Source: Verrucomicrobiia bacterium
GTDB lineage: Bacteria > Verrucomicrobiota > Verrucomicrobiia > Verrucomicrobiales > Akkermansiaceae
Assembly: GCA_030431475.1 (NCBI GenBank)
Contig: JAUIJD010000012.1
Location: 1-64,000, forward strand
Reading direction: 5' to 3'
DNA length: 64,000 bases
Shown: in pieces, positions 7,586 to 62,611 of the stretch
Layout: each line of letters opens with the position of its first letter
Position numbering within the stretch: the stretch's first letter is position 1
Program-made: the position numbers and the translations under genes
Notes under the pieces: model-generated
Told to the model about the DNA's origin: nothing
The model's input: only the letters and a program-made list of their open reading frames with translations
Databases searched by the model: none

Positions 7586-7943
7586 TGGTGGAGGCGAGGG
7601 GAGTCGAACCCCTGTCCGAAACGCTATCAGCGCTGGCATCTACACGTTTAGCCGGCGTTCGGTGGTTTCGGATGGGATCGGCCCGCCGGCCGCGTCCCCC
7701 AACCTAGGATCCTGTTGAATCTCACCACCGGGTCCGGATCCCCGACCCGATGGCCAGCCTGCTAGGTAGTCGCCTTTCCCCTTAACAGGCGTCCGGGGTC
7801 GGGCGTTGCTGTCAATTAAGCAGCAAGTGCGAGCTCGTTAGAGTCTGCAATTATTTGTTTTGGACGGCTTTTTAGGAGGCCAACCGACCAACCTCCACGT
7901 GCAGCCAGCGCGTCGAACATCCCGTCGAAACCAGAACGCCCCC
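7586..7943 (-). ncRNA. ssrA: Transfer-messenger RNA (tmRNA)
   Basis: About 358 nt on the minus strand. The 5' end reads GGGGGCGTTCTGGTTTCGAC, and the 3' end has a T-arm with GTTCGACTCCCCT, an acceptor strand CGCCTCC and an encoded CCA (at 7586-7588). Acceptor strands GGGGGCG and CGCCTCC pair with one G-U. The mRNA-like part carries the tag reading frame at 7816-7848. It rescues ribosomes stalled on truncated mRNAs by trans-translation. This is a one-piece tmRNA; I see no permuted form. Downstream of its 3' end is non-coding DNA. Confidence 0.95.
7816..7848 (-). other. tmRNA proteolysis tag reading frame
   Basis: Codons GCA GAC TCT AAC GAG CTC, then GCA CTT GCT GCT TAA, encode ADSNELALAA and a stop. 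The ALAA ending is the usual degradation signal recognised by ClpXP-type proteases. The frame is open further upstream, so the resume codon GCA is assigned by analogy with other tags (inference). Confidence 0.85.
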
Positions 7944-47111: not shown

Positions 47112-47489
47112 TCAAGCCCCGGTCGCCTTTCGGATCATCTCAAAATGGCGGTCGCGTTCCAGCAACTCGACTCCGTGACGTCTGGCACAGGCGAAGATCA
47201 AAATGTCGCCCAAAGGAACATTCACTCCGGCCCGGAGACAGCGCCGACCGAACTCCGCGGCTGCCATCCAGCACTCGTCATCGAAATCCAGCCACACGCT
47301 CAGCTCCCGCCAGCCCTGAAGGTTCTCTTCCTCCCTGAGCCCCCGCGCTCCTTGGTGCAGCTCCAGCCAGACCGGCCAAGCCATCGCGCAATCTCCGCCC
47401 TCCAGCAGATCGCCGACTTCCTTCTGCAGAGACTCCTCGCCTCCCTTGCGAGAGACCTCCACCCACACCGAGCTGTCGATCAGGATCAC
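47112..47489 (-). CDS. vapC: VapC-like PIN-domain toxin
   Basis: 125 residues. The PIN fold has acidic residues at expected places: ILIDSSVWVE (Asp5), WPVWLELHQGAR (Glu in the middle), PLGDILIFACARRHG and the final ERDRHFEMI. VapC toxins cut tRNA or rRNA. ATG overlaps the vapB stop by 4 nt. The usual T-x-D third position appears as L-G-D. Codon use matches the chromosome. Confidence 0.9.
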   Translation of the reverse strand: MILIDSSVWVEVSRKGGEESLQKEVGDLLEGGDCAMAWPVWLELHQGARGLREEENLQGWRELSVWLDFDDECWMAAAEFGRRCLRAGVNVPLGDILIFACARRHGVELLERDRHFEMIRKATGA

Positions 47490-47722
47490 CGGGCTTGCGG
47501 CTCCAGCCCCTCACGCTCGGCGATCTCCGCGAGATCTCCGCACTCGATCTCCTCGTTGCTGGCGAAATCGAGCGTACCGAAGTTTGCCACGAGATCCTTC
47601 ACCCGCTGCTGACGATTGTAGGCCTCCAGAGCCTTCACCACCGCCTCGCGCTTTGTTTTCGCCCCGGAAAAGCGCATGGCATCCGCCAAGGTCTCATCGG
47701 GAATATCGATCGTCGTTTTCAT
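47486..47722 (-). CDS. vapB: VapB-like ribbon-helix-helix antitoxin
   Basis: 78 residues. MKTTIDIPDETLADAMRFSG with AKTKREAVVKALEAYNRQQR is a typical VapB family 2-type N-terminus: short beta strand then the RHH helices. The C-terminal acidic tail (FASNEEIECGDLAEIAEREG) would wrap the VapC active site. It precedes vapC with a 4-nt overlap, the standard gene order for autoregulated pairs. Confidence 0.9.
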   Translation of the reverse strand: MKTTIDIPDETLADAMRFSGAKTKREAVVKALEAYNRQQRVKDLVANFGTLDFASNEEIECGDLAEIAEREGLEPQAR

Positions 47723-47927: not shown

Positions 47928-50900
47928 TCATCCCACCTCCCGATACACGCTCCGGCCCTCCTCCGGATACTTCTCCAGCACGTGCTGGAACAGCACCCCG
48001 CACTTCTGCTCGAAAAGCTCCGCCGTGTATTTCTCCGGCAATCCGGCATCCAGCATCTTCTCGATCTCCACCCGCACCGCCGCCCGTGTGGTCCGCTTGT
48101 TCCGCCATGCCAGCACCAGCAGCTCGGTCTTCAGTTTCGCCAACAGCTCCTTGCAAACCTTCTTGATCGCCTCTTCCTCCTTCGGATCGAGCTCCGGACC
48201 GGGACGCGTGAGAATGTCGAACACCGCCAGCTCCTCTTCGCTGACGTTCTCGCGCAGGTGCCGCTGCTCCTCCTCGTTGAGGTCCTTGGAAAACTTCACC
48301 AGCTCCTCGAACAGCGCCTCGATGCTCAGCGCGCCGCTGTTGTAGGCCTCGATCATCTTCTGGAAGCGGTCGAGGTAGTCGTAGCGGCTCGCGTTCAGGC
48401 GGATCAGGTTGTCCAGCTTCCGCTCGATCAGCGCCCGCAACTGCTGCGCCTCCAGGTTCTTGGTCTTCGACTTGGCGAACTTTCGCTCCAGCACATCGAA
48501 GTCCACTTGGCTCAGGTCGATCACCTTCGCCTTCGCCCCCGGTTCGACGTGTGGCTCGGCAAGGATAGCCTCGTCCAGCTTCTTCCCGATCTCCTCCATC
48601 ACCGCGGTGATGTCCACCGGATCGGCCTGCGCGCGGATCGCCTTCTCCAGCTCGCGCACCACCTGCGCCTTCGGTGCCAGCTTCGGGATGATCGGGTCCG
48701 GCATCACTGCCTTGTAGAGCCGCTGCACGTCCCGCGCATGACCGAGGAACTCGTCCTTCACGTCGTCCGTCCGCATGAGCTGGTTCACCGCCGGCACGAA
48801 GTGCTTCACCGGCTCCCTCGCCACCGCTTCCAGATCCACGTTCTGCTTCCGGCAAAACTCCGCCACCTGCTCCAGCGCGATCTTCAGCGCCTCGATCAGC
48901 TCGGTCTTGTCCTTCACCGGCAGCTCGCCGCCGCTACGGCCGCTGCCGTAGATCGCCAGCGCCTTCTCCAGCTCCTGAAAAACGTTCGCGTAGTCCACGA
49001 TCAGGCCGTTCACCTTGTCTCCATACACCCGGTTCGCGCGGGCGATGGTCTGCATCAGCGTGTGCCCGCGCATCGGCTTGTCGAGGTAGAGCGTCGAGCA
49101 ACTCGGCGCATCGAAACCCGTCAGCCACATCGCGCAGACGAAGACGAGACGGAACTTGTCCTCCGGATCCTTGAACTTCGTCTCCAGGTCCTCCTTCACC
49201 ATCCGCTCGCGGTGCGGGAGGATGTCGAAACCCTTCGCCTTCATCTCGGCGATCTCGTTCTGCCCCGGCGACACCACCACAGCCATATCCGTCTCGGTCA
49301 GGTTGCGCAGCCGCTCGATCAGCGCCGGATAGTCCGGATGCTGCGGGTTCAGCCCGTCCAGCGCCGACCGCACCCGCGCCGTCTCCGCCTCCCACTCGGC
49401 CCGCACCTTCTCGTACATCTTCAGCGTGGTCAGCTTGTCGATCGAGACCACCATTGCCTTCCCCTGATACCCGCGGTTCAGGAAATGGTGCACGATGTCC
49501 TTCGCCACCGCGTCCAACCGCTCCTCGCGGGTGATCAGGTGGTAGCGCTTGCCCAGCACCTGCTTGAGCTTATCCTCCTGGTTGTCGTCCAGCCCGGCCT
49601 CGTCGATCACCTGGTAGATCTCGTCGTTCAGCTCCGGGTTGGTGATTTCCAGCTCCGGCGTCCGGTTCTCGTAGAAAAGCGGCACCGTCGCGCCATCCTC
49701 CACGCTCTGGCGGAAGTCGTAGATGCTCACGTAGTCGCCGAAGACCTCCCGCGTCCGCTCCTCGCCGGCGATCAGCGGCGTGCCGGTGAAGGCCACGAAC
49801 TTCGCGTTCGGCAGCGCCGTCCGCATGTTCATCGCCAGCGTGTCGTATTGGCTGCGGTGCGCCTCGTCGGTGAGCACGATGATGTCGTCCCGCTCGCTCA
49901 GCACCGGATGCAGCGTCCCCGGCTCGGTGCGGAACTTGTGGATGAGGGTGAACACGTAGCGGTGGTCCTCGCCCAGCAGCTTGCGCAGGTGGCTCGTGCT
50001 CGTCGCCTGGCAATGCCCCTCCGTCGCCGCCCCGCAGGTGGCGAAGGTCCGGTAGATCTGCGTGTCCAGCTCCTGCCGGTCCGTGATCACCACGAAGGTC
50101 CAGTTCCCCGCCAGCTTGCGGAACACCTTCTCGGCAAAAAACACCATCGAGTAGCTCTTGCCGCTCCCCTGCGTGTGCCAAAACACACCCACGCGTCCGT
50201 CCTTCACTGTCTTCAGCGCCTCAACCGCGCGGTTCACGCCGAGGAACTGGTGGTTTCGAGCCACCAGCTTGCCCACCGCTCCCTTGCTCTCCGAGAAACG
50301 GCAATAGTTCTCCAACAGGTCCAACAACCGGCTCTTCTCACAGGTTCCCCGCAACAGCGTGTTCAGCGAAATGTCCGGCGTCTCGTCCTCCGCCGCCACC
50401 TTCTTCCAATCGGCGAAATGCTCCCACGCCGCCGTCAGGCTGCCGATCTTGCTCTGCACCCCGTTCGAGACGAGGACAAACCCGTTGTAGTGGAAAAGCT
50501 GCGGGATCGATTCCTGGTAGTCGGCCAGGTTCTTGTCGAAGGCCTCGCGCACGTGCACCCCCGGCTTCTTCAGCTCGATCAACACCAGCGGCAACCCATT
50601 CACGAAGCCGATCAGGTCCGTCCGCCGCGTGTAGAGGTCGCCGCTGATCCAGAACTGCGAGACCAGCAGGAAATCATTCGCCGCCGGGTCGTCCCAATCG
50701 ATCACCCGCACCACCTCCGTCCGCTGTCCGCCGCGCTCGCGGTCCGGGATGGTCACCTTCACCCCGCCGCGCAGTAGCTTGTCGGTCTCCCGGTTCGCCT
50801 CCACCAGGCTCAATGCCGAGCGATCCCGCGTCAGCTCCTCCACCGCCGCATCCAGCGCCTCGGCGGGAAGGTCCGGGTTCAACGATTGGAGCGCCGGCTT

Positions 50901-51062
50901 CAGCCGCCCCATCAGCACCACCTCCCGCTTCGCCTCGCGGCCGAGGTTGCTCACGCCCGAAGTCCACTCGTCATAGGCATTCACCGAGTCCCAGCCCAGC
51001 TCATGCTCCAAGAGCTGGATCGCCGGTTGCTCGATCAGGTGGTCTTCGGTGTAGCCGCTCAT
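47928..51062 (-). CDS. hsdR: Type I restriction endonuclease, R subunit
   Basis: 1044 residues. The N-terminal PD-(D/E)xK nuclease has Asp149 in RRTDLIGFV and E163-L-K165 in LVLIELKKPG. The translocase has Walker A GSGKS at 299-303, DEAH at 399-402 (VLTDEAHRSQYDT), FVAFTGTPLIAGE, and motif VI-like MQTIARANRVYGDKVNGLIV. A helical C-terminal domain follows. It cuts DNA lacking the cognate methylation together with HsdM and HsdS. ATG overlaps the PD-(D/E)xK gene's stop by 4 nt. Its first ~350 bp are repeated at 55353-55700, about 4.6 kb upstream. All motifs look intact, so restriction should be functional provided HsdM and HsdS are. Confidence 0.96.
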   Translation of the reverse strand: MSGYTEDHLIEQPAIQLLEHELGWDSVNAYDEWTSGVSNLGREAKREVVLMGRLKPALQSLNPDLPAEALDAAVEELTRDRSALSLVEANRETDKLLRGGVKVTIPDRERGGQRTEVVRVIDWDDPAANDFLLVSQFWISGDLYTRRTDLIGFVNGLPLVLIELKKPGVHVREAFDKNLADYQESIPQLFHYNGFVLVSNGVQSKIGSLTAAWEHFADWKKVAAEDETPDISLNTLLRGTCEKSRLLDLLENYCRFSESKGAVGKLVARNHQFLGVNRAVEALKTVKDGRVGVFWHTQGSGKSYSMVFFAEKVFRKLAGNWTFVVITDRQELDTQIYRTFATCGAATEGHCQATSTSHLRKLLGEDHRYVFTLIHKFRTEPGTLHPVLSERDDIIVLTDEAHRSQYDTLAMNMRTALPNAKFVAFTGTPLIAGEERTREVFGDYVSIYDFRQSVEDGATVPLFYENRTPELEITNPELNDEIYQVIDEAGLDDNQEDKLKQVLGKRYHLITREERLDAVAKDIVHHFLNRGYQGKAMVVSIDKLTTLKMYEKVRAEWEAETARVRSALDGLNPQHPDYPALIERLRNLTETDMAVVVSPGQNEIAEMKAKGFDILPHRERMVKEDLETKFKDPEDKFRLVFVCAMWLTGFDAPSCSTLYLDKPMRGHTLMQTIARANRVYGDKVNGLIVDYANVFQELEKALAIYGSGRSGGELPVKDKTELIEALKIALEQVAEFCRKQNVDLEAVAREPVKHFVPAVNQLMRTDDVKDEFLGHARDVQRLYKAVMPDPIIPKLAPKAQVVRELEKAIRAQADPVDITAVMEEIGKKLDEAILAEPHVEPGAKAKVIDLSQVDFDVLERKFAKSKTKNLEAQQLRALIERKLDNLIRLNASRYDYLDRFQKMIEAYNSGALSIEALFEELVKFSKDLNEEEQRHLRENVSEEELAVFDILTRPGPELDPKEEEAIKKVCKELLAKLKTELLVLAWRNKRTTRAAVRVEIEKMLDAGLPEKYTAELFEQKCGVLFQHVLEKYPEEGRSVYREVG
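50709..51055. repeat. hsdR 5'-end direct repeat, copy A (within intact hsdR)
   Basis: About 346 bp of the hsdR start (codons ~3-118). It aligns without large gaps to 55353-55700; I count about 28 mismatches by eye, roughly 92% identity. Both copies have the same orientation. Confidence 0.88.
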
Positions 51063-52138
51063 GGTGACATGATTAGGTCGATCGTCTTCGCGAACTCTTC
51101 GAAAGCATCTAGCGACCCCGGGACATTCGAAAGAGGCTCCTGCAACTCAATGAGAGGGAGCCCCGCCCCGTCATTACCCATTCGCGCCGGGCAGATCGCG
51201 GATAAGCGGTCGACCAATGGCTGGACACGAGCATGCTCCAAGCGTCGGCAAAAGACGCACAAACGAATGTCAGCGAGATACTCGCCCGTTCGGAACCATA
51301 CGATCTCCATGTCTCCCCAATGTGGGTAGCTGGCCCCAATCGCCCACTCCTGAGGCCATCGAAGAACCCGCACCGAGGGGTCAGCCTTGCCTGTGGCCGC
51401 CGTCATTCTTCGGCGGATCTCTTCGACCATCACAGACCCATAACGCACCGACAGCGCCTTGAGGCGTTCGACCTCGACAAAGTTTTCCTCAATCAACTGA
51501 ATCTCCGGATCCGTCATGGCGGGTGTGCAAAGTGTCTCAAGAATGTGCCTGATGAACTCCTTCGCGAAGATGCCCCATCTTGAGGCGCAGGGATCCGGGA
51601 ACGTTTCCGCGAGAGCGCTTCGAATCCTTCCAAAGAGCGTCCCGTAGGAAAGTCCAATCCAACCCTGGGCATGCGCCTCACCCTGCGGCGACAAGATCAC
51701 CAGGATGGGATCTGCGGCTCCCAAATGGGTCCGCACGTAGCGCTCGTACTCATCGAATGGGTTGTTCTGCTCGTGATAGACCTTGTTCTCGATGACCATG
51801 GCCCAGCCGCGCCCTTGGAGGAGCAGGTCGATTCGTTTCCCAGTATCCGTCGGCCATTCCCGGTCCACCGACGTTTTCTCGAGGCGAAGTCCGGACTTCG
51901 AAACACGGGACGCACCGCCTTCGTTTGCCAGCGAATCGAACAAGGCCTCCAGAAACAGAGTGCCCAATTCATGCCCTGCATCGGGCCGGAGAAAGAAGGC
52001 CAGCAGATCAGAGGTCGGGTTCTCGTAGTATCCGCGGCCCCCGATGGAAAACAGGGTCGGCTCACGCCGCGTTTCCTTCAGCTCCCGAATCCTCTCCAAA
52101 AGCTGGAGCGGCACCCGATCTTCGACCTCGGCGCTCAT
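51059..52138 (-). CDS. PD-(D/E)xK nuclease-superfamily protein
   Basis: 359 residues. It has ENPTSDLLAFFL early (residues 40-50), then the nuclease-like core: D104 in GKRIDLLLQGRG and E117-N-K119 in WAMVIENKVYHEQ, followed by FDEYERYV. This arrangement is like the PDDEXK_4 family of prophage/defence-associated proteins. The C-terminal 200 residues are unassigned. It sits directly before hsdR with ATGA overlap, and across a divergent 141-bp region from the DUF1778 gene. It could add a DNA-cutting activity or help the restriction complex (inference). No cysteines or membrane segments stand out. Confidence 0.75.
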   Translation of the reverse strand: MSAEVEDRVPLQLLERIRELKETRREPTLFSIGGRGYYENPTSDLLAFFLRPDAGHELGTLFLEALFDSLANEGGASRVSKSGLRLEKTSVDREWPTDTGKRIDLLLQGRGWAMVIENKVYHEQNNPFDEYERYVRTHLGAADPILVILSPQGEAHAQGWIGLSYGTLFGRIRSALAETFPDPCASRWGIFAKEFIRHILETLCTPAMTDPEIQLIEENFVEVERLKALSVRYGSVMVEEIRRRMTAATGKADPSVRVLRWPQEWAIGASYPHWGDMEIVWFRTGEYLADIRLCVFCRRLEHARVQPLVDRLSAICPARMGNDGAGLPLIELQEPLSNVPGSLDAFEEFAKTIDLIMSP

Positions 52139-52151
52139 GATTGACCTCCTA

Positions 52152-52205
52152 TTTCACGAAAAATCCCACTTTCACCGTGCGGTGAAACACCCCAAAAACG
52201 TGAAA
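52152..52205. promoter_or_regulatory. TTTCAC/GTGAAA palindrome array, candidate antitoxin operator
   Basis: The central palindrome TTTCACCG TG CGGTGAAA (52170-52187) is flanked by TTTCACG (52152-52158) and its complement CGTGAAA (52199-52205). It occupies the divergent promoter region between the PD-(D/E)xK gene and the DUF1778 gene. Ribbon-helix-helix antitoxins of TacA type bind such palindromes, so the DUF1778 protein is the likely ligand (inference). Confidence 0.6.
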
Positions 52206-52279
52206 CTTTCCATGCCACCTCCTCCGTCTTCTCTAATTCCCGCTTGCGAATTGGGTGACGCTGTGGCACACATTTCCCC

Positions 52280-52573
52280 ATGAACACGGCCACCAAGAAG
52301 GCGAAATCCGAGCGTCTCGTCGCCCGGATTAGCCCGGACGACAAGGAAACCATCGAGCGTGCCGCCGAAATGGAAGGCCGCTCGCTGGCTGCCTTCACCG
52401 TCGAACACCTGCTCGCCAAGGCCCGCGAGGTCATCGAGGAACGCACCGTCATCCGGCTCAACGAAGAGGAATCCCGTCGCTTCGTGGAAATCCTCAACAC
52501 CCCCCCACGCAAGCCGACGAAGGAGATGCTCGATGCCTTGAAGCTGTATCGGGAGACGGTCATCGAGCATTGA
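52280..52573 (+). CDS. DUF1778 (TacA-like) antitoxin
   Basis: 97 residues: a basic N-terminus MNTATKKAKSERLVARISPD, then DKETIERAAEMEGRSLAAFT with VEHLLAKAREVI. The R-x-S-P-D-x-K-x-x-I-E-x-A-A...G-R-S-L-x-x-F motif is the DUF1778 ribbon-helix-helix signature. The C-terminal RTVIRLNEEESRRFVEILN and PPRKPTKEMLDAL resemble the toxin-neutralising tail of TacA antitoxins. It is the only plus-strand gene between 47.9 and 62 kb and runs tail to tail with the GNAT gene, their stops overlapping by 14 nt. In known pairs the two genes are co-directional. Confidence 0.9.
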   Translation: MNTATKKAKSERLVARISPDDKETIERAAEMEGRSLAAFTVEHLLAKAREVIEERTVIRLNEEESRRFVEILNTPPRKPTKEMLDALKLYRETVIEH

Positions 52574-53075
52574 GGAGTTCGGCCACCGCCTGCATCGGCA
52601 GGAACATTCGCTGCGGAGTCAGCGGCTCGAAGCCGAAGCGCTGGTAAAAGGACGCCGCCGCCTCGTCCTTCGGATCGGTCACGAGGGCGATCGAAGCAAC
52701 ATCCGCCGCCGCGTCGGCACTTCGCCGCATGGCGCTGAAAAGCAGACGCGTCCCCAGACCCTGACCGCGAAAGTCGAGGGATACCGCCAGCCGCCCCAGC
52801 AAGGTCGCCGGGAGTTCGGGATAACGAGGCAGCTTCTTGAGCAGCTTTTCCGGTAGCGACGCCCGCTCGATCGTCGCCGCCGACAACGTGTAGTATCCTA
52901 CGATCCGCGAGCCGCCCTCCTCCTCCGTCGCCACGAAACACGCCGCTACTCCCGAGGCGACATCCTTTCGCGCACGCTTGGAGAGGTATTCGTTGAGTGC
53001 ACCCACACCGCAGTCGAAGCCTTCGCGGTCGTGAAGCGAGGGATTGAGGGGGTAAACATGGAGGATGTTGCTCAT
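52560..53075 (-). CDS. GNAT acetyltransferase, TacT-like toxin
   Basis: 171 residues from the ATG at 53075. It has LHDREGFDCGVGALNEYLSK with RARKDVASGVAACFVA, RIVGYYTLSAATIERASLPE, and the acetyl-CoA binding motif RLAVSLDFRGQGLGTRLLFS with R-G-Q-G-L-G. The F-D-C-G...L-N-x-Y-L and Y-T-L-S-A blocks are characteristic of TacT-family toxins that acetylate aminoacyl-tRNA. The YQRFGFEPL end is intact. It follows the DUF4268 gene with a 4-nt overlap and its 3' end overlaps the convergent DUF1778 gene by 14 nt. The antitoxin is therefore on the opposite strand from its probable toxin. Confidence 0.88.
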   Translation of the reverse strand: MSNILHVYPLNPSLHDREGFDCGVGALNEYLSKRARKDVASGVAACFVATEEEGGSRIVGYYTLSAATIERASLPEKLLKKLPRYPELPATLLGRLAVSLDFRGQGLGTRLLFSAMRRSADAAADVASIALVTDPKDEAAASFYQRFGFEPLTPQRMFLPMQAVAELLNAR

Positions 53076-54232
53076 TCTTCGATCTCCTCCTGCGGCGCTC
53101 CGGTGGTTTGGAACTCTGTCTTCAGCTTCTGCCCGAGGGGTTTCAGGCGGGCTCCAAAGGCCTTCTCCAGCCGCTTCACGTGCTCGACCAGCCACTCGAT
53201 CATCTCCGGCCAGTTGTCCGGGTCGTAGCCGTCGAACTCCTTCCGATGACGGATGCCCGAGGCCTTCTTGTCGTCAAGCCGCAGCCACTCGAACTCGGCT
53301 CCGAAGTCCGCTTCGATCGCCTCCCTCTGCTCGTGAAGGCGGTCGAACAGCCACTTGTTCTCGGCCTTGCTGCCCCGCCCAATCGAGAGATCCGCCCGGG
53401 CCTCCTTCTGCGAAAAGATCATCGTGTAAGGCACGCCGCTCAGCCCGGACCCCGCATTCAGCCAGTGGTCCTTGCTCGGGCTGACATTGGTGTAGAGCGA
53501 CACTCCGGCATCCTCCAGAGCCGACAGCACCTTTTCCCAGAAGGCCAGCCGCAGCTTCTCGCGCTTCACCAGCCCGCGCTCGGTGCTTTGCTGCTCCTTC
53601 TCCTTCTCCGCCATGCCGATCATGAAATCCTCCGCCTCCGGGATCGGGATGATCTGCTCCACGTTGAGGAAGAGCTCACCCGCGCTGTCGAAGACCGTCG
53701 CCCGCATGCACTGGACCCGGAGGCCGTGCTGGAGCAGCCAAAGCACCGTGGCCGTCACCTCCCGGCGGAAGTTCGCCGCCACCAGAATGACTCGCTGGTC
53801 GATCCCCGAGTTCAGAATCACGTCCTCCTCTTCCTCCTTCTCGAGGAAGTCGCTGATCACCTTCCGCGCGTCGCCGCCGCCGTTCCGGCTCAGGTAGCTC
53901 TGGAAGATCTCCACGATCTGAGCCGTCTTGAGTGAGGAACAGTAGGCCGCATACTTGAGCGACTGCCACACCACGTCGCGGCCGGAGTCATCGAGCTTGT
54001 TCTCGATCACCACCACGTTGCCCGCCTTGTCGAGGGCCAGTAGGTCGAGCCGTTCACGGGTCTCGTCGAAGCCGTCGAACTCCTTCTGGATCACCAGCAG
54101 CTCCTCACCCAGGCATTCCGGACACTTGGCGATCCACTCCTGCAAATGCGCCCGCTCCTTGAAGCCGAGTTCGCCGAAACCCTTCGCCGATACCGCCGTG
54201 ATGGCGTTGGTTGTCTTGTCGATGTGATACAT
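53072..54232 (-). CDS. DUF4268 protein with PD-(D/E)xK-like N-terminal domain
   Basis: 386 residues. A nuclease-like core lies in residues 60-90: D63 in RERLDLLALDKAG and E77-N-K79 in VVVIENKLDDSGRDVVWQSL, followed by YAAYC. The C-terminal region (KLRLAFWEKVLSALEDAGVS, PSKDHWLNAGSGLSGVPYTM, then ENKWLFDRLHEQREAIEADF) matches the DUF4268 pattern often linked to restriction systems. Overlaps the GNAT start by 4 nt; 20 nt downstream of the 365-residue gene. It is part of the cargo between hsdS and hsdR. The partner or target is unknown. Confidence 0.8.
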   Translation of the reverse strand: MYHIDKTTNAITAVSAKGFGELGFKERAHLQEWIAKCPECLGEELLVIQKEFDGFDETRERLDLLALDKAGNVVVIENKLDDSGRDVVWQSLKYAAYCSSLKTAQIVEIFQSYLSRNGGGDARKVISDFLEKEEEEDVILNSGIDQRVILVAANFRREVTATVLWLLQHGLRVQCMRATVFDSAGELFLNVEQIIPIPEAEDFMIGMAEKEKEQQSTERGLVKREKLRLAFWEKVLSALEDAGVSLYTNVSPSKDHWLNAGSGLSGVPYTMIFSQKEARADLSIGRGSKAENKWLFDRLHEQREAIEADFGAEFEWLRLDDKKASGIRHRKEFDGYDPDNWPEMIEWLVEHVKRLEKAFGARLKPLGQKLKTEFQTTGAPQEEIEE

Positions 54233-54252
54233 GATCTGATTCCAAAAAGTCT

Positions 54253-55350
54253 TTATCGAGTTCCACGGCTAACAATCGCTTCCGTCAATTCGCGTCCGAG
54301 CTTGCTATGCTGCTCACCCAGCATCTTCATGAGCTTCCGCAGCGCGTTTCTTCCTCCGGGAGCCAGCACCAGCCGGTTCACTTCCGCTCGCATTCCGAAC
54401 TGGTTTCTTATCGCATTGACCGGATCGCCGCCCTTCGTGCCCACCTTGAGCCAGCCGATGGAGAACTGTACAGCGGTGTCGCCTGGGGGACTCAAGGCGG
54501 AATACGAATCGAGATGCTGGGAGATCCCCTTCAACCGCTTCTCGTGTGCGAGCACCTTTTTGGTATCCTCTTCGCCAAGGTCCCGTTCGAGCTGGCCGAT
54601 CCACTCGCGGACACTTTGGAATCGGTCCCGCATCTGAATCGCCGTCTCAACAAACCTAGAGAGGTCCGAGGACGCCTCGATCACTTCGACCACGATCGGA
54701 GGGAGCTGAATATTGGCGACGTACCCCGGCCGGTCGATCTGACGGGAAATCTTCAATCGCTCGGAACTGACGAATCTCTCCAGGCGCCCAAGGGCCTCAG
54801 GTCCATACAGACACCCCGCGCGTTCGAAAAGCGACTGCCGCAATGGGTGAGCTGAGTAGGGAAGCTTGAAGTAATCCGCACGTGCTAGCATTCCGGACCC
54901 TCCCCACACCAACTGCGAAAACAAAGAATCCGGGCTGGTCTGATCTTTTGACCACTGCCTCTTATTCGCTCGATGAGCTTTCCGGAGAGAGGCATTCACA
55001 CACAAGGCGTCGCCCATTGCTTCCCGGGCAGGAATCCACTCGTCGGCGTAGGACTTGAACGGCTTCTGCACGACCACACGCTCAGACTTGGCCTTGGATA
55101 GGGAGGAATTGTCCGCCCAACCACCTCCGAAGTTTTCATCGACCCAGACCTCGTCCGCCAGGACAAGGTGATTCAGGATCTGGCAGAGGGCGGCGAAGCG
55201 CACCAAGTCCGCCAACACGTCCTTGTAACCGTAGCCGTCTCCCTTGTCAGGAATCACAAGCTCCCGCGCATCGTCTCCGTCGAGACCCTGCTCCAGAAAC
55301 TCTGCCGCGTTCTGAAAAGTCCAATTGTCCGCCAGAATCCGCGTCTTCAT
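54253..55350 (-). CDS. Unknown 365-residue protein in type I restriction locus
   Basis: I do not recognise this protein. It starts MKTRILADNWTFQNAAEFLE and continues with LADLVRFAALCQILNHLVLA, DEVWVDENFGGGW, a central Arg/Lys-rich stretch (RKAHRANKRQWSKDQTSPDS) and a C-terminal VNAIRNQFGMRAEVNRLVLA followed by PGGRNALRKLMKMLG. There is no signal peptide, membrane segment or obvious nuclease motif. The early acidic/aromatic cluster could be a binding surface. Its ATG overlaps the stop of the truncated hsdR copy (ATGA), and DUF4268 follows 20 nt later, so it is translated within the operon. GC is a little below the chromosome. Confidence 0.65.
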   Translation of the reverse strand: MKTRILADNWTFQNAAEFLEQGLDGDDARELVIPDKGDGYGYKDVLADLVRFAALCQILNHLVLADEVWVDENFGGGWADNSSLSKAKSERVVVQKPFKSYADEWIPAREAMGDALCVNASLRKAHRANKRQWSKDQTSPDSLFSQLVWGGSGMLARADYFKLPYSAHPLRQSLFERAGCLYGPEALGRLERFVSSERLKISRQIDRPGYVANIQLPPIVVEVIEASSDLSRFVETAIQMRDRFQSVREWIGQLERDLGEEDTKKVLAHEKRLKGISQHLDSYSALSPPGDTAVQFSIGWLKVGTKGGDPVNAIRNQFGMRAEVNRLVLAPGGRNALRKLMKMLGEQHSKLGRELTEAIVSRGTR

Positions 55351-55703
55351 AACACCACCTCCGTCCGCTGCCCGACGCGCTCACGGTCCGGGATCTTCAC
55401 CTTCACCCCGCCGCGAAGCAGCTTGTCGATCTCCCGGTTCGCCTCCACCAGGCTCAGCGCCGAGCGATCCCGCGTCAGCTCCTCCACCGCCGCCTCCAGC
55501 GCCTCGGCGGGAAGCTCCGGGTTCAAGGATTGGAGCGCCGGCTTCAGCCGGCCCGTCAGCAGGACCTCCCGCTTTGCCTCGCGGCCAAGGTTGCTCACGC
55601 CCGAGGACCACTCGTCGTAGGCGTTCACCGTGTCCCAACCCAACTCATGCTCCATGAGCTGGATCGCCGGCTGCTCGATCAGGTGGTCTTCGGTGTAAGC
55701 CAT
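55347..55703 (-). pseudogene. Truncated second hsdR N-terminus (118 codons)
   Basis: MAYTEDHLIEQPAIQLMEHE and LGWDTVNAYDEWSSGVSNLG continue the intact HsdR almost residue for residue to GQRTEVV, then end at TGA overlapping the next ATG. The missing part includes the whole nuclease and helicase, so this is a remnant or a duplicated start. It can be translated as a short polypeptide that might feed the coupled downstream gene. Nucleotide identity to the hsdR start is about 92% over ~346 bp. Confidence 0.88.
55353..55700. repeat. hsdR 5'-end direct repeat, copy B
   Basis: Direct repeat of 50709-51055. The two copies bracket about 4.3 kb of cargo: the PD-(D/E)xK, DUF1778, GNAT, DUF4268 and unknown genes. 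Homologous recombination between them would remove the cargo and leave a single hsdR start. Confidence 0.88.
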
Positions 55704-55717
55704 TATTCGCAATTTCC

Positions 55718-57229
55718 CTAGTTAGAGGAACCAATTCTCCCCAAAACATCGGACAGGCATTCTGCTTCGGCGCTTCCTTCGTCCGCAGATTCCAGCATCC
55801 CAATCACATCCATTCCTTCAAACTTCAGGGTGTCTTGCTTAATTTCGACTACGATTCGATCCCACTCAGCTACGACCTTCTCTTCCGATTCCTGTGTGAC
55901 CTCCCAATCGTTTGCCTCTAGCCCTGCAATCTGTGCGAGGGGTTCCAAATCGACCTTCAAAGAGAGTTTCAAGGACTCAGGCGTCATCCGAAATAGTTTG
56001 AGTAGTTTCAATAGGAGCTCGGGTCTACCAAACCAATCAACATCAAGCTGTAATTCACGCGTGAGATCTCCACGGTCCTTCGAGCCAAGCTTTATCGAGT
56101 AGGAAATGCTTCCACCGGGGAAATACAAAACACCACCGTTGGTTGAGATATCAGATGGGTTGAATCCAAACTCCCTCCTCAAGCGAGGGCGCCACTTGTC
56201 AAAATCCTCTTTCGTGTAGCCCGCCATCGCTTCCGATGAATTCGCCGCGTATTCCAACTGCTCTATCGGTCGAGAGCGATTCGACCACTCGGTGAGAATT
56301 GAACTCGTGTACTCATCAAAGCTGTCCTCAAGAAACAACCACGACAGGGGAAATCCCTGAATCTCCGAAAGGTCGCTTGAGCTCCCAAGAACTTGACTAA
56401 AATCACCGAGCACAACGACACCCGTGACCTCTTCAAACAGAGTTGGCGTCTGCTTGATTCTCCTGGACCGACAATTTCGGGCAACCTCCTCGTTTACGTA
56501 GCCAAATAGGGAATGCAGCGTGAGAATCTGGTCGTCCAGCGCGTCGGGATGGCCCCTAAGCCCCTGAAGAAGGTAGTGAGTAAATAGACTCAACTTCGGA
56601 TTGGGCGATTCCTCATGCGAAGCCTGATCAGCAGCGCTAGAGCAGATTACCGCCAACCCATTGGTATCAGCAATGTGTTTGGAGAAGGACTTCTTTGAAA
56701 ACTTCGAGGGGTGAAGTTTAGGGCCAATCTTAACAGGACCACTCAAGCATGCATCAACCACTACGATGCACTGCTTTGCCAATGAACCCTTGAGAATCGC
56801 AATGACCTCGTTCATTGACACGAGGGCTTTCGGATTATCCGCTGAGTATGAGTCGGAGACCACCAGGTAGTGATCATCATCCCCAGCAATTCGATGGCCA
56901 TGACCACTAAAGTAAAAGAGGATACGATCATTTGGTCCGGCTTCTTCCGCCAAAGTCTGAATCTGGTCGAGAATATGACCAATGGTTGGCGGTGTTCTCT
57001 TCGTATGCGTCGTCACGAGCTTCAGATTCTCGGGGTCGGCATTCAGCTGATGTGTGTCACGAAACGCAGCGTGAACCTGCAAAGCATCCTCAGAGCATCG
57101 CTTCAAATTGGAAAAATTGGACTTGGAGAGGTAATCATCTACTCCGACGGCAAGTACTCGAATCGGCCCATTAGCTTCGGCAATCGCAAGGTCGGCTTTC
57201 TGGACTGTTGTCAGGCTTTCACTCATCAT
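55718..57229 (-). CDS. Caspase-like (peptidase C14) protein
   Basis: 503 residues from the first of two tandem ATGs at 57229. The caspase fold occupies roughly residues 22-270: strand IRVLAVGVDDYLS, then catalytic His110 in ILFYFSGHGHRIAGDD and catalytic Cys161 in CIVVVDACLSGPVKIG, followed by AVICSSAADQASHEESPNPK and LSLFTHYLLQGLRG. The C-terminal ~230 residues are unassigned and could be a regulatory domain. Bacterial caspases in defence loci are protease effectors that cleave partner proteins on phage sensing. GC is near 50% by eye, well below the chromosome, indicating transfer. It follows the HEPN-like gene by 37 nt. Confidence 0.9.
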   Translation of the reverse strand: MMSESLTTVQKADLAIAEANGPIRVLAVGVDDYLSKSNFSNLKRCSEDALQVHAAFRDTHQLNADPENLKLVTTHTKRTPPTIGHILDQIQTLAEEAGPNDRILFYFSGHGHRIAGDDDHYLVVSDSYSADNPKALVSMNEVIAILKGSLAKQCIVVVDACLSGPVKIGPKLHPSKFSKKSFSKHIADTNGLAVICSSAADQASHEESPNPKLSLFTHYLLQGLRGHPDALDDQILTLHSLFGYVNEEVARNCRSRRIKQTPTLFEEVTGVVVLGDFSQVLGSSSDLSEIQGFPLSWLFLEDSFDEYTSSILTEWSNRSRPIEQLEYAANSSEAMAGYTKEDFDKWRPRLRREFGFNPSDISTNGGVLYFPGGSISYSIKLGSKDRGDLTRELQLDVDWFGRPELLLKLLKLFRMTPESLKLSLKVDLEPLAQIAGLEANDWEVTQESEEKVVAEWDRIVVEIKQDTLKFEGMDVIGMLESADEGSAEAECLSDVLGRIGSSN

Positions 57230-57266: not shown

Positions 57267-58214
57267 TCAATCGTTTCCGTACTCGGGCTCAAATTCCATT
57301 TCCCGAAGTTCCTCGCGAACGAACTCAGCGGGAAGGTCTGCCGCCTGGACCTCTTCAGAACCGTCCAAATAGAGAGTGCAGGTCGGGCAGTAGAATACCC
57401 TGCTGACGTAGGTTGATCGCACCTTCTCCTCCATCCAGTTTTCCGGATCTTCGTGCTCAAGAACCTCCTCATCCCACAGCGCGCCGGCTATTGGAGCATT
57501 GCATCCGCATGCGGGGCAACTCACGAAGTCCTCGCAATCAATATCGCCTCCAAAGAACTTCTGGACGTCCCACCAGCCGAGTTTGTCGGCATCGTCTTTG
57601 GCCTTTTGCAGCTTTGCGGGGTTCCTGTGCTCCTTCTCGAAATCAGCCTTTCTCCTGGAAATCCGATCCTTCACCTCCCACGCCCTCGCTTCGGCAGCTT
57701 TTGTGACAACTTCTTGAGGGGCTTTTGCCTTTTCAGCGCCTAGCCACGATTCCAGGGACTCTCCCTGAATTTGAAGAATACAGTCAACCGCACTCCAGAA
57801 TTGTCTTTCCCATGCCTCCGGGGCCATTCCTGAAAAGGGAGACTCTCCTGAATGAAGTTCCGCATTGCGACGAAGAGACATCTGCTCACAGAATTTTTGG
57901 TGATCCGAGTCGAACTGCTTGCCCAAATGGGTGAGCCTAACAAACAAGGTCTTGGCTGTGATGGTCTTTGTGTCGGCAGAGATTGTCCGGCCACAGGCTG
58001 CGAAGAGGGATTCAAAGTGTTGCGGATCCGCAACCAAGGCTGGATGCACCCCCGCCAAAGCCGCCTTCCCGAGCAACTCGAGAGCGAGCGACGCCCATAG
58101 CTGATACTCTTCTCGGTCGCCGGAATCCAACGCCCTAAATCCCCGGAGGATGTAAACCTGGGATTTGCCGTAGAGGGCTTCAGCCTGAAGGGATGGAATC
58201 GTGTGATGGCTCAT
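57267..58214 (-). CDS. HEPN-like domain protein with C-terminal zinc ribbon
   Basis: 315 residues. The N-terminal helical domain contains LWASLALELLGKAALAGVHP followed by LFAACG, and the motif R116-NAEL-H121 in MSLRRNAELHSGE. The Rx4H spacing is that of HEPN nucleases and RNA-binding domains. A Lys/Glu-rich coiled segment (DRISRRKADFEKEHRNPAKL) links to a zinc ribbon with CPACGC near residue 233 and YCPTC further on. A nuclease or nucleic-acid sensor role is inferred from this combination. Coupled to the upstream oxygenase gene by an ATGA overlap at 58211-58214. GC is lower than in the host genes. Confidence 0.6.
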   Translation of the reverse strand: MSHHTIPSLQAEALYGKSQVYILRGFRALDSGDREEYQLWASLALELLGKAALAGVHPALVADPQHFESLFAACGRTISADTKTITAKTLFVRLTHLGKQFDSDHQKFCEQMSLRRNAELHSGESPFSGMAPEAWERQFWSAVDCILQIQGESLESWLGAEKAKAPQEVVTKAAEARAWEVKDRISRRKADFEKEHRNPAKLQKAKDDADKLGWWDVQKFFGGDIDCEDFVSCPACGCNAPIAGALWDEEVLEHEDPENWMEEKVRSTYVSRVFYCPTCTLYLDGSEEVQAADLPAEFVREELREMEFEPEYGND

Positions 58215-58879
58215 TGGACAAGGATTCGCAGTAATTCTCGGTTTAGGTCGGGCGTCACGGCAGGCTCTCGACCATGGATAATCCGCCAGTTGTCGAGGAT
58301 CAGGATGTCATTCTCGGTCCAAACATGGCGGTGCACCTCCTCGCTCGATCTACGGCTAGAAAACAACTCCAGTAACTCATGTCCTCCCGGGCGGATCGGC
58401 CTCATGCACCCAGGATCCATGCGGAGAAACTCGCGCTTCCGCGAGAGGATCGTGCTGAAGAAGGAAGCTCTTCCATTGATGACTCGAAAGGGCTCGGTAA
58501 AGAGCCGGTCGGTTTCATCAGCCTCGATAGGCACAGCCTTAGAATCCAAGACGAGAGTCGCCCGTCTTGCATCCCCCGGATTCACGCATCCCAACACGAT
58601 GTAGCGGCAAGGAGTGATCCAATGGGCGGTGTCAGTGTGCAAAGGAAAGGCACCAGTCGCATGTAAACCGCTCAAAGAACGTGCCCGTGCGTTGCATCGC
58701 TCCACCGGTTTTAGCGATTCGACCACAGTGTCACGATTGCGACCGCCAACTGGGTTGCCTAGCAGCGTCGCGATTTTCTTCATGCGAGTGTCCAATCCAG
58801 CCGAACCAGTGTGGGATTCAATAACCCATCCCCTTGCTTCGATCTGGGAAGCCACCTCAGTTGAAAGCAAATCAATCAT
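58211..58879 (-). CDS. TauD/TfdA-like 2-oxoglutarate/Fe(II) oxygenase
   Basis: 222 residues. The metal site H-x-D...H is seen as H81-T-D83 in GAFPLHTDTAHWITP and H202 in LDNWRIIHGREP, with an Arg (about 214, in NREL) placed to bind 2-oxoglutarate. The second half has VLDSKAVPIEADETDRLF and FRVINGRASFFST. It is shorter than TauD (about 280). The start overlaps the hsdS stop by 8 nt and its stop overlaps the HEPN-like gene. Putting an oxygenase first in a set with a HEPN-like protein and a caspase suggests modification of a nucleotide, amino acid or a protein residue (inference). The substrate is unknown. Confidence 0.75.
   Translation of the reverse strand: MIDLLSTEVASQIEARGWVIESHTGSAGLDTRMKKIATLLGNPVGGRNRDTVVESLKPVERCNARARSLSGLHATGAFPLHTDTAHWITPCRYIVLGCVNPGDARRATLVLDSKAVPIEADETDRLFTEPFRVINGRASFFSTILSRKREFLRMDPGCMRPIRPGGHELLELFSSRRSSEEVHRHVWTENDILILDNWRIIHGREPAVTPDLNRELLRILVQ

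Positions 58880-60070: not shown

Positions 60071-60074
<4 letters not shown>
58872..60074 (-). CDS. hsdS: Type I restriction specificity subunit S
   Basis: 400 residues with the expected two-TRD layout. First [23 protein letters not shown] and [12 protein letters not shown]; its conserved helix [20 protein letters not shown] with [20 protein letters not shown]. Second TRD starts [20 protein letters not shown] and ends with [20 protein letters not shown] and a final helix. It sets the DNA target with HsdM. In the central linker, between FVHFRF and [12 protein letters not shown], lies [12 protein letters not shown], whose DNA (59521-59552) is the same repeat as at 7512. It overlaps hsdM by 4 nt and the oxygenase start by 8 nt. 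Confidence 0.93.
59525..59542. repeat. Short interspersed repeat, copy 2 (inside hsdS)
   Basis: CCTTCGCTGAAGCTTCGG exactly as at 7512-7529. Here it is read through in frame and encodes part of the residues [12 protein letters not shown] in the linker before the second TRD. Confidence 0.6.
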
Positions 60075-62095
<2,021 letters not shown>

Positions 62096-62611
62096 GCGCG
62101 GTGGATTTCTACCAGATCCAGCCATGACGGCAAGAAATGGACCCGCACGATCATTCCGCGAAACCCGGCACCCTTTCCCTTCTCGAACCGCGGCCGGGAA
62201 TCGCCCCCCGCTCGTCTGCCGTAGCAGGCTCCGCCGCCAGATGTGGCACTCCGTGCCGAGAACGCGAAAGGCGCGGATGAATCCGCGCCTTTCCAGCTCC
62301 TCCCTCGTCTCCCGATCATTGGCCTGATCGAGCTTCTTCCTTCGCTCATCCGGGTCTTTCCACGAACGCCGCTCAAGTATCCGATTCACGACCCTCCAAC
62401 TTCCGTGGCGACTCGGCCTCGCCTCGATTTCCGCCAGCCGCGCCTCGGCCTCGGGAATGGAGACGGTACCCGCCGGCCTGAAAGGTCGGAAGAAGCCTTC
62501 TCGCGACCCTTCAGGCCGCATGCCCGGCCCCTACCTCGAAACCCGGGGCGATGCCCCGGGCTTCGTTCTTATGACCCTGCGGGCCATCGACGCCGCCGCC
62601 CCCACGATGCC
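62096..62611. other. Intergenic region upstream of hsdM with strong hairpin
   Basis: About 515 bp between hsdM and rtcB starts/stops. It contains a perfect 13-bp-arm hairpin GAAAGGCGCGGAT GA ATCCGCGCCTTTC at 62266-62293 with no T-tract, next to TGGCACTCCGTGCC. The hsdM frame stays open to 62521, but the content is Arg-rich and not family-like, so I call it non-coding. The hsdM promoter should be here. Confidence 0.55.

What the first reader, a model, noticed from the sequence alone, without database searches (positions are those of the whole stretch)
50709..55703. Cargo block bracketed by two copies of the hsdR start
The first ~346 bp of hsdR recur at 55353-55700 in direct orientation with about 28 mismatches by eye. 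Between them lie PD-(D/E)xK, DUF1778, GNAT, DUF4268 and an unknown gene. The second copy is cut exactly where the unknown gene's ATG begins. This looks like cargo acquired by recombination at the hsdR 5' end, perhaps from a related locus, and predicts loss by recombination between the repeats.
Basis: partly seen in the sequence, partly recalled or inferred. Interest (0 to 1): 0.75.

Follow-up and report, generated by a model that had tools for sequence, protein, structure and literature searches.

The report
Old restriction-gene stumps between stacked genes
Between the parts of a bacterial DNA-cutting defence operon sits the broken-off start of an older copy of its cutting gene, and many other bacteria carry similar stumps, which suggests that new defence genes are stacked behind the old gene start each time the operon is rebuilt.

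Summary
The repeat is real. Codons 1-118 of hsdR (50709-51056) recur in direct orientation at 55353-55700: 28 differences in 345 nt, 91.9%. The second copy ends 2 nt before the unknown gene's ATG. It is not a copy of the present hsdR: it matches the hsdR of two relatives equally well (92.2%, 91.6%), so it is the start of another allele.

It is not unique. I catalogued 59 such hsdR 5' stumps in 49 loci, mostly Verrucomicrobiota; 30 have an intact hsdR in the stretch held, and all 30 lie upstream of it on the same strand. They run from about codon 1 to codon 19-155, with up to three in one locus. The gene before a stump often has a homologue directly before an intact hsdR elsewhere (23 of 56, against 2 of 117 control ORFs); here it is the caspase gene.

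Best reading: cargo is added in layers. A new [cargo-hsdR] block joins behind the start of the old hsdR and leaves a stump. Similar 'sequential displacement' is published for type VI secretion and Rhs loci; my searches found none for hsdR.

The parts
60071..62521 (-). hsdM, 816 aa ORF, interrupted in frame by a DUF559-like segment at about 60842-61288 (DUF559 is my recalled label)
   Evidence: ORF; PADLOC MTase_I; hsdM of L028, L034 and L045 lacks the segment
58872..60074 (-). hsdS, specificity subunit
   Evidence: PADLOC Specificity_I E 4.7e-81
58211..58879 (-). TauD-like gene, older cargo layer
   Evidence: Pfam TauD E 5.1e-12
57267..58214 (-). 315-aa protein, no Pfam match, older cargo layer
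55718..57229 (-). Caspase (Peptidase_C14) gene directly before the stump; its homologue precedes an intact hsdR in L073
   Evidence: Pfam E 2.7e-21; 50.6% over 476 aa, directly before hsdR in L073
55353..55700 (-). hsdR stump: codons 1-118 of another hsdR allele, 91.9% identical to 50709-51056; ORF 55347-55703
54253..55350 (-). 365-aa protein of unknown fold, start overlaps the stump's stop by 4 nt; same junction in L051/L135
53072..54232 (-). DUF4268 protein, PADLOC candidate PDC-S11
   Evidence: Pfam E 1.2e-36; PDC-S11 E 8.4e-167
52560..53084 (-). GNAT acetyltransferase, probable toxin of a TacAT-type pair (pairing inferred from the neighbouring TacA)
52280..52573 (+). TacA/DUF1778 antitoxin, opposite strand
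   Evidence: Pfam TacA1 E 1.5e-21
51059..52138 (-). PDDEXK_4 nuclease, PADLOC candidate PDC-S26; stop overlaps the hsdR start by 4 nt
47928..51062 (-). Intact hsdR, 1044 aa; 50709-51056 is the other copy of the repeat
   Evidence: Pfam HSDR_N, SWI2_SNF2, T1RH-like_C

Best explanation
The 55353-55700 copy is a scar. An older operon hsdM-hsdS-cargo-caspase-hsdR received a block [unknown gene ... PD-(D/E)xK-hsdR] whose left end was joined about 350 bp inside the old hsdR. The body of the old hsdR was lost or displaced, its first 118 codons stayed behind the caspase gene, and the operon again ended in one intact hsdR. Such events recur in type I operons of the order M-S-cargo-R, so cargo is laid down in layers with the newest next to hsdR and some layer boundaries marked by an hsdR 5' stump. 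Shown here: the stumps, their orientation, their different-allele origin in most cases, stacking, the association with long cargo, and caspase-hsdR order elsewhere. Inferred: recombination anchored on hsdR as the route, either one-sided homologous joining with an illegitimate left end, or single crossover of a circularised [cargo-hsdR 5'] fragment. Once made, a stump|cargo junction can travel with its cargo.
For: (1) Orientation: of 59 stumps not at an end of the stretch held, 30 have an intact hsdR in it, and 30 of 30 are upstream on the same strand (one of them, L146, abuts the intact gene within 24 nt and may be a local duplication). (2) Specificity to the 5' end: in 56 named loci with a full hsdR, nine segments of that hsdR were searched against the rest of the locus. 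Codons 1-120 gave 13 matches in 8 loci, all upstream and same strand; the other eight segments gave one (36%, L070). (3) Association with cargo: stumps in 0 of 12, 1 of 18, 11 of 25 and 5 of 9 loci as the hsdM-hsdR gap rises through <2.5, 2.5-4, 4-6 and >6 kb. Some of those loci were fetched because they held stumps; my count by hand from that list, named loci only, is 8 of 21 at 4 kb or more against 1 of 26 below (p 0.006), or 8 of 23 against 1 of 27 if three named contigs held as G copies are added (p 0.007). (4) Ancestral order: the gene before the stump has a homologue directly before an intact hsdR of another locus for 23 of 56 stumps (22 at 30% identity or more), against 2 of 117 control ORFs. 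(5) The locus's own hsdR is the best nucleotide match for only 10 of 31 stumps and never exceeds 93.2%. (6) Window and L051 align without a gap across the stump|unknown-gene junction while the neighbouring genes on both sides differ. (7) Two or three stumps in one locus (L053, L057, L063, L145).
Against: No recent event was seen: no locus pair with and without one layer at otherwise matching flanks, so polarity rests on homology at 23-93%. The window's stump is an intact ORF, and 49 of 60 stumps have an open frame, which could also mean a function; the window stump's own private changes (3 nonsynonymous, 2 synonymous) are not unusual (p 0.65). For 33 of 56 stumps no ancestral neighbour was found, and 29 of the 59 have no intact hsdR in the stretch held. 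Two of 28 stumps with hsdM in the stretch have it downstream (L145). A mosaic test of the stump was negative. A prediction of the single-crossover version, discordant ancestry of hsdR start and body, was only weakly seen: same nearest neighbour in 4 of 22 stump-bearing against 24 of 57 stump-free loci, p 0.066, with partial loci included. Nothing explains why stumps end before about codon 155. Many loci are related, so counts are not independent events.
Confidence: 0.76

Rival explanations
1. Tandem operon fusion: a second whole type I operon landed next to the first, then a deletion ran from inside the first hsdR through the second hsdM and hsdS, leaving a stump and the second cargo-hsdR.
For: L145 has a partial hsdM behind its third stump and further down an hsdR body without a start (31% identical to codons 288-1009 of the window's). 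L140 and L160 have an hsdS-tail-like peptide right behind the stump (2 of 65 scanned, motif recalled). It explains why stumps keep codon 1 next to an intact upstream gene.
Against: Only these three loci show relics of a second hsdM or hsdS. Random deletion ends should also give stumps longer than 155 codons, and none were found in 56 loci.
Confidence: 0.3
2. The stump is a functional small HsdR-N protein or a translated leader that couples translation from the upstream gene to the next cargo gene, kept by selection.
For: Open frame in 49 of 60 and in-frame start codon in 54 of 60 stumps. 4-nt stop/start overlap with the unknown gene in both window and L051. Pairwise dN/dS of the window stump is 0.10-0.27, though most of that divergence may predate the truncation.
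Against: Ends range from codon 19 to 155; 11 of 60 are broken. Private changes pooled for two stumps are 12 nonsynonymous to 4 synonymous against 16 to 28 in full hsdR starts (p 0.010; 0.045 with L046), but that signal comes from L051's stump (9 to 2 against 16 to 23, p 0.037); the window's own (3 to 2, p 0.65) says nothing. L051's stump has lost residues invariant in alignment A1 (P63, N90, K102).
Confidence: 0.13
3. A mobile element or integrase inserts cargo site-specifically into hsdR and restores its start, as islands do at tRNA or trmE genes (comparison recalled).
For: In the catalogue the joint lies in the hsdR 5' part (codons 19-155), and the gene is intact downstream where one is in reach.
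Against: No integrase or transposase family among the window cargo genes searched, though two of them match no family. Break points vary from codon 19 to 155.
Confidence: 0.05
4. Assembly artefact or chance.
For: The window lies in a 109-contig assembly.
Against: The copies differ at 28 positions, the same junction occurs in an independent genome (L051), and stumps occur in many assemblies including a single-contig genome (G002).
Confidence: 0.01

Closest known systems
Sequential displacement in type VI secretion effector-immunity loci, and Rhs C-terminal displacement as cited there (PMC5361080, passages read)
   Same: A conserved gene part anchors recombination; new modules arrive; pieces of the old gene and old partner genes stay as ordered layers; homology-facilitated illegitimate recombination is proposed; arrays then spread by homologous recombination.
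   Different: Mirror image: there the conserved 5' part stays and old 3' ends and immunity genes pile up downstream. Here the intact gene is last, and old 5' ends pile up upstream inside a restriction operon.
Genes embedded between hsdS and hsdR (PMC12255303, passages read: DarTG2 and another gene pair; site called a potential recombination hotspot), and PrrC inside a type IC locus (PMC12707154, passages)
   Same: Same site in the first case and the same kind of cargo; two window cargo genes match PADLOC candidate families PDC-S11 and PDC-S26.
   Different: The passages I read do not mention hsdR stumps or a layering mechanism.
Truncated hsdR in broken systems (PMC6918075, PMC10886032, PMC8088579, PMC12660161; passages read)
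   Same: hsdR is cut short.
   Different: They describe an incomplete or inactive system, a plasmid copy or a laboratory strain, not a stump between cargo genes ahead of an intact hsdR.
Integron cassette array (recalled; also compared in PMC5361080)
   Same: New genes enter at one end and push older ones away.
   Different: No integrase family found in the window block, and no fixed break point.

Membership tests
Sequential displacement locus (T6SS/Rhs type) | Truncated pieces of the constant gene, in fixed order and orientation | tested here: met
   30 of 30 upstream, same strand
Sequential displacement locus (T6SS/Rhs type) | Old partner genes retained next to the truncated piece | tested here: met
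   23 of 56 against 2 of 117 controls; window caspase against L073
Sequential displacement locus (T6SS/Rhs type) | Several layers in one locus | tested here: met
   L063 and L145 three stumps (one of L145's partly masked), L053 and L057 two
Sequential displacement locus (T6SS/Rhs type) | One homologous and one illegitimate end in a single event | not testable with these tools
   No recent event with matching flanks found
Type I restriction-modification operon | hsdM, hsdS and full-length hsdR on one strand | tested here: met
   hsdM carries a DUF559-like insert, so activity is not assured
Integron or integrase-borne island | Recombinase gene in the inserted block | tested here: not met
   No recombinase family among cargo genes from PDDEXK_4 to TauD; two match no family
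Integron or integrase-borne island | Fixed break point | tested here: not met
   3' ends spread over codons 19-155
Functional HsdR N-terminal protein | Conserved length | tested here: not met
   Ends at codons 19-155
Functional HsdR N-terminal protein | Purifying selection after truncation | tested here: inconclusive
   L051's stump looks relaxed (9 N to 2 S, p 0.037); the window's own (3 to 2) is uninformative; 49 of 60 frames open

The most novel reading that the evidence does not exclude
The hsdR start acts as an integrase-free landing pad. Each stump is a portable homology arm: a [stump-cargo] unit can leave and re-enter any related type I operon by ordinary RecA recombination, so these operons behave as open cassette arrays for defence genes, in several phyla. 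The shared stump|cargo junctions (window/L051, L063/L072, L082/L123) and L145, where two RhuM-family genes (57% identical) each follow a stump, would be units that have moved or multiplied this way.
Probability: 0.3. Interest if true: 0.82.

Novelty: new variant of a known kind. Interest (0 to 1): 0.62.

Why it matters
Genes embedded in type I operons are used to predict new defence systems, but how they get there is little explained in what I read. Stumps mark layer boundaries, so they could date cargo relative to hsdR, show which genes arrived together, and give a sequence tag for finding candidate defence genes. They also make a mechanism testable in laboratory strains.

Tried and rejected
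Self-duplication of the present hsdR: rejected, because the stump is as close to two relatives' hsdR as to its own and own hsdR is best in only 10 of 31 cases. A mosaic test of the stump, looking for the end near the junction to resemble L051's stump and the start to resemble the local allele, showed no such trend. hsdR start/body ancestry was suggestive only (p 0.066). Fold of the unknown 365-aa protein: mean pLDDT 46 from five sequences, too poor to search; not pursued. An hsdS tail behind stumps as a general rule: only 2 of 65 (background 2 of 625 random stretches). A length limit set by the nuclease active site: by the best-matching query all 30 paired stumps end before E163/K165 and one (L075) passes D149, but a short-length bias for any reason gives the same; the active-site assignment is my motif reading. 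Stump length was scored with 220-codon queries and anything reaching codon 190 was called full, so longer stumps are excluded only where looked (56 loci). Literature: searches listed no title or abstract on hsdR stumps among cargo. Four listed papers that hold the words 'truncated hsdR' and the one that holds 'hsdR fragment' (an engineered deletion) were opened at those passages and describe other things. The rest were seen as listings only, and the library lacks most subscription journals. Rows dropped before counts: duplicates of one contig (L058, L065, L135; also L046, L047, L049, L061 where the G copy was used); L174, L176 and L043; stumps within 150-250 nt of a stretch end, the limit differing by script, hence n of 59, 60, 65 and 31. 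The ancestral-order test first gave 26 of 65, but that list held contig-edge pieces and one distant full-length hsdR; on the 59 catalogued stumps it is 23 of 56, the figure used. The 59 include weak cases (L043 at 36%; L151, L169, L148, L146 and one of L144's two do not begin at codon 1). L106 and L110, near-identical, were both kept.
Full report
What is there. The window holds a type I restriction-modification operon on the minus strand in the order hsdM, hsdS, cargo, hsdR. Between hsdS and hsdR lie a TauD-like gene, a 315-aa unknown, a caspase gene, a piece of hsdR, a 365-aa unknown, DUF4268, GNAT with an opposite-strand TacA antitoxin, and PDDEXK_4. The piece is 55353-55700, the first 118 codons of hsdR. 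It starts at the start codon, not before, and ends 2 nt from the next gene's ATG; the stump ORF's stop and the next gene's start overlap as ATGA.

Where it comes from. The stump is 91.9% identical to its own hsdR, 92.2% to that of G002 and 91.6% to that of G008/L046. So it is a third allele from the same clade, not a duplication of the present gene.

It is a recurring feature. A search of 97 genomes (own and relatives) with the stump protein found other short copies near full ones. A profile of hsdR starts was searched in 384 genomes of the class and used to fetch 79 named loci. A second hsdR subfamily, 38% identical to the first over residues 10-206, shows the same feature, including on another contig of the window's own genome (C31, L037). 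After removing duplicates I catalogued 59 stumps in 49 loci, not at a stretch end; 30 share the stretch with an intact hsdR, and all 30 lie upstream on the same strand. Of the 28 with hsdM in the stretch, 26 have it upstream on the same strand; the two exceptions are both in L145, which holds relics of a second operon. Records labelled Deltaproteobacteria, Chlorobiaceae, Armatimonadetes and Gammaproteobacteria carry stumps too; they are metagenome bins, so labels may be wrong.

Specificity. In 56 named loci with a full hsdR I searched nine segments of that hsdR against the rest of the locus. The first 120 codons gave 13 matches in 8 loci, all upstream and same strand; the other eight gave one weak match, and nothing lay downstream or on the other strand. 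Of 60 stumps, 55 begin within 4 codons of the hsdR start, and the 3' ends run from codon 19 to codon 155 of a protein of about 1044.

Link to cargo. Among 64 operons with hsdM and hsdR in reach, stumps occur in 0 of 12 with a gap under 2.5 kb, 1 of 18 at 2.5-4 kb, 11 of 25 at 4-6 kb and 5 of 9 above. Because some of those loci were fetched for their stumps, I recounted the named loci by hand from that list: 8 of 21 at 4 kb or more, 1 of 26 below (Fisher p 0.006); with three named contigs held as G copies, 8 of 23 and 1 of 27 (p 0.007).

Order of events. A stump sits behind its upstream gene as an hsdR does: where a gene ends within 260 nt (56 of the 59), 48 of 56 are 50 nt or less away. For 23 of those 56 the upstream gene has a homologue directly before an intact hsdR in another locus, against 2 of 117 control ORFs downstream of hsdR. 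For the window it is the caspase gene, whose homologue (51% over 476 aa) directly precedes the intact hsdR of L073. L072 has stump-Fic-hsdR; L063 has stump-Fic-stump-cargo-hsdR, one more layer on the hsdR side (Fic by Pfam). So older cargo lies towards hsdS and newer cargo next to hsdR.

Shared junctions. Window and L051 (another family of the class) are homologous from the stump's start through the unknown gene (75% over 1395 nt), with no gap at the junction (one 3-nt gap at the stump's start codon), while genes on both sides are unrelated. L063/L072 (Fic) and L082/L123 (an AAA_21 ATPase) also share a junction; a set with RhuM-family cargo (L145 by Pfam; L160, L165, L166 by homology) shares its cargo and part of the junction. 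AbiEi-like cargo follows stumps in L028, L032 and L057, but there the stump ends differ. Junctions can therefore outlive their first locus. A third relative, G204/L134, carries the unknown gene in a type I operon without a stump before it, and in two more (L136, L137) I recognised no hsd gene among the ORFs listed beside it.

Scar or gene. Of 60 stumps 49 have an open frame and 54 an in-frame start, so a translated role cannot be excluded, and the window's stump is an intact ORF. But ends vary eightfold. Private changes pooled for two stumps are 12 nonsynonymous to 4 synonymous against 16 to 28 in full hsdR starts. That signal comes from L051's stump (9 to 2, p 0.037); the window's own (3 to 2) is uninformative. 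I read them as scars, perhaps with a leftover role in translational coupling.

Mechanism. The common outcome is M-S-old cargo-stump-new cargo-hsdR. Three routes fit: one-sided recombination anchored on hsdR with an illegitimate left joint; circularisation of a donor fragment [cargo-hsdR 5'] and single crossover (circularisation and single crossover of linear DNA is reported in E. coli, abstract of PMC3240628); or fusion of tandem operons by deletion. L145, L140 and L160 favour the third in those loci. I cannot separate them for the window.

Against the literature. Genes embedded between hsdS and hsdR are known, and the site has been called a potential recombination hotspot (PMC12255303, passages). 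Stepwise displacement with remnants is described for type VI secretion loci and cited there for Rhs (PMC5361080, passages). Searches listed no account of hsdR stumps as layer marks, and the five papers opened for 'truncated hsdR' or 'hsdR fragment' describe other things. I therefore call it a new variant of a known kind.

The ancestral-order count was cleaned from 26 of 65 to 23 of 56, the selection test was split by stump and weakened, and the cargo labels were checked with Pfam. The odds for a functional stump rose from 0.12 to 0.13; the rest stand.

Noticed in passing
window 60842-61288 (-): DUF559-like segment (recalled label) inserted in frame in hsdM, bounded by [12 protein letters not shown] / [13 protein letters not shown]; hsdM of L028, L034 and L045 lacks it. 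Similar segments occur in seven other loci held (L028, L036, L051, L057, L070, L118, L166); in L028 one ends the hsdR homology at about codon 284.
   Followed up: partly
L028:8143-8199, L029, L031, L032, L053, L057, L034/L046 (hsdR about codon 33): A short repeat (reading like SPRLRRTGW or LRQGYEGQ) is inserted at nearly the same hsdR codon, after NAYDEW, in several stumps and in frame in two full-length hsdR genes (L034/L046, L057): a possible insertion hot spot.
   Followed up: partly
L037 (own genome, contig 31, 79314-84436): A second type I operon of the same genome also has an hsdR stump (codons 1 to about 79, about 90% identical) and an hsdR split into two overlapping frames near 81941. 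The cargo behind this stump joins a deaminase domain and a RecG-C-terminal-like HATPase_c_4 domain.
   Followed up: partly
L145: Three stumps between cargo genes including two RhuM-family genes (57% identical), then a partial hsdM and an hsdR body without a start (807-aa ORF): a decayed multi-layer operon.
   Followed up: partly
window 47112-47722 (-): Genes that look like a VapBC toxin-antitoxin pair (my reading of the translations) directly downstream of hsdR; a relative of the VapB-like gene lies between hsdS and hsdR in L038.
   Followed up: no
window 7586-7943 (-): tmRNA gene, the only Rfam match at gathering threshold in the window; ordinary.
   Followed up: no
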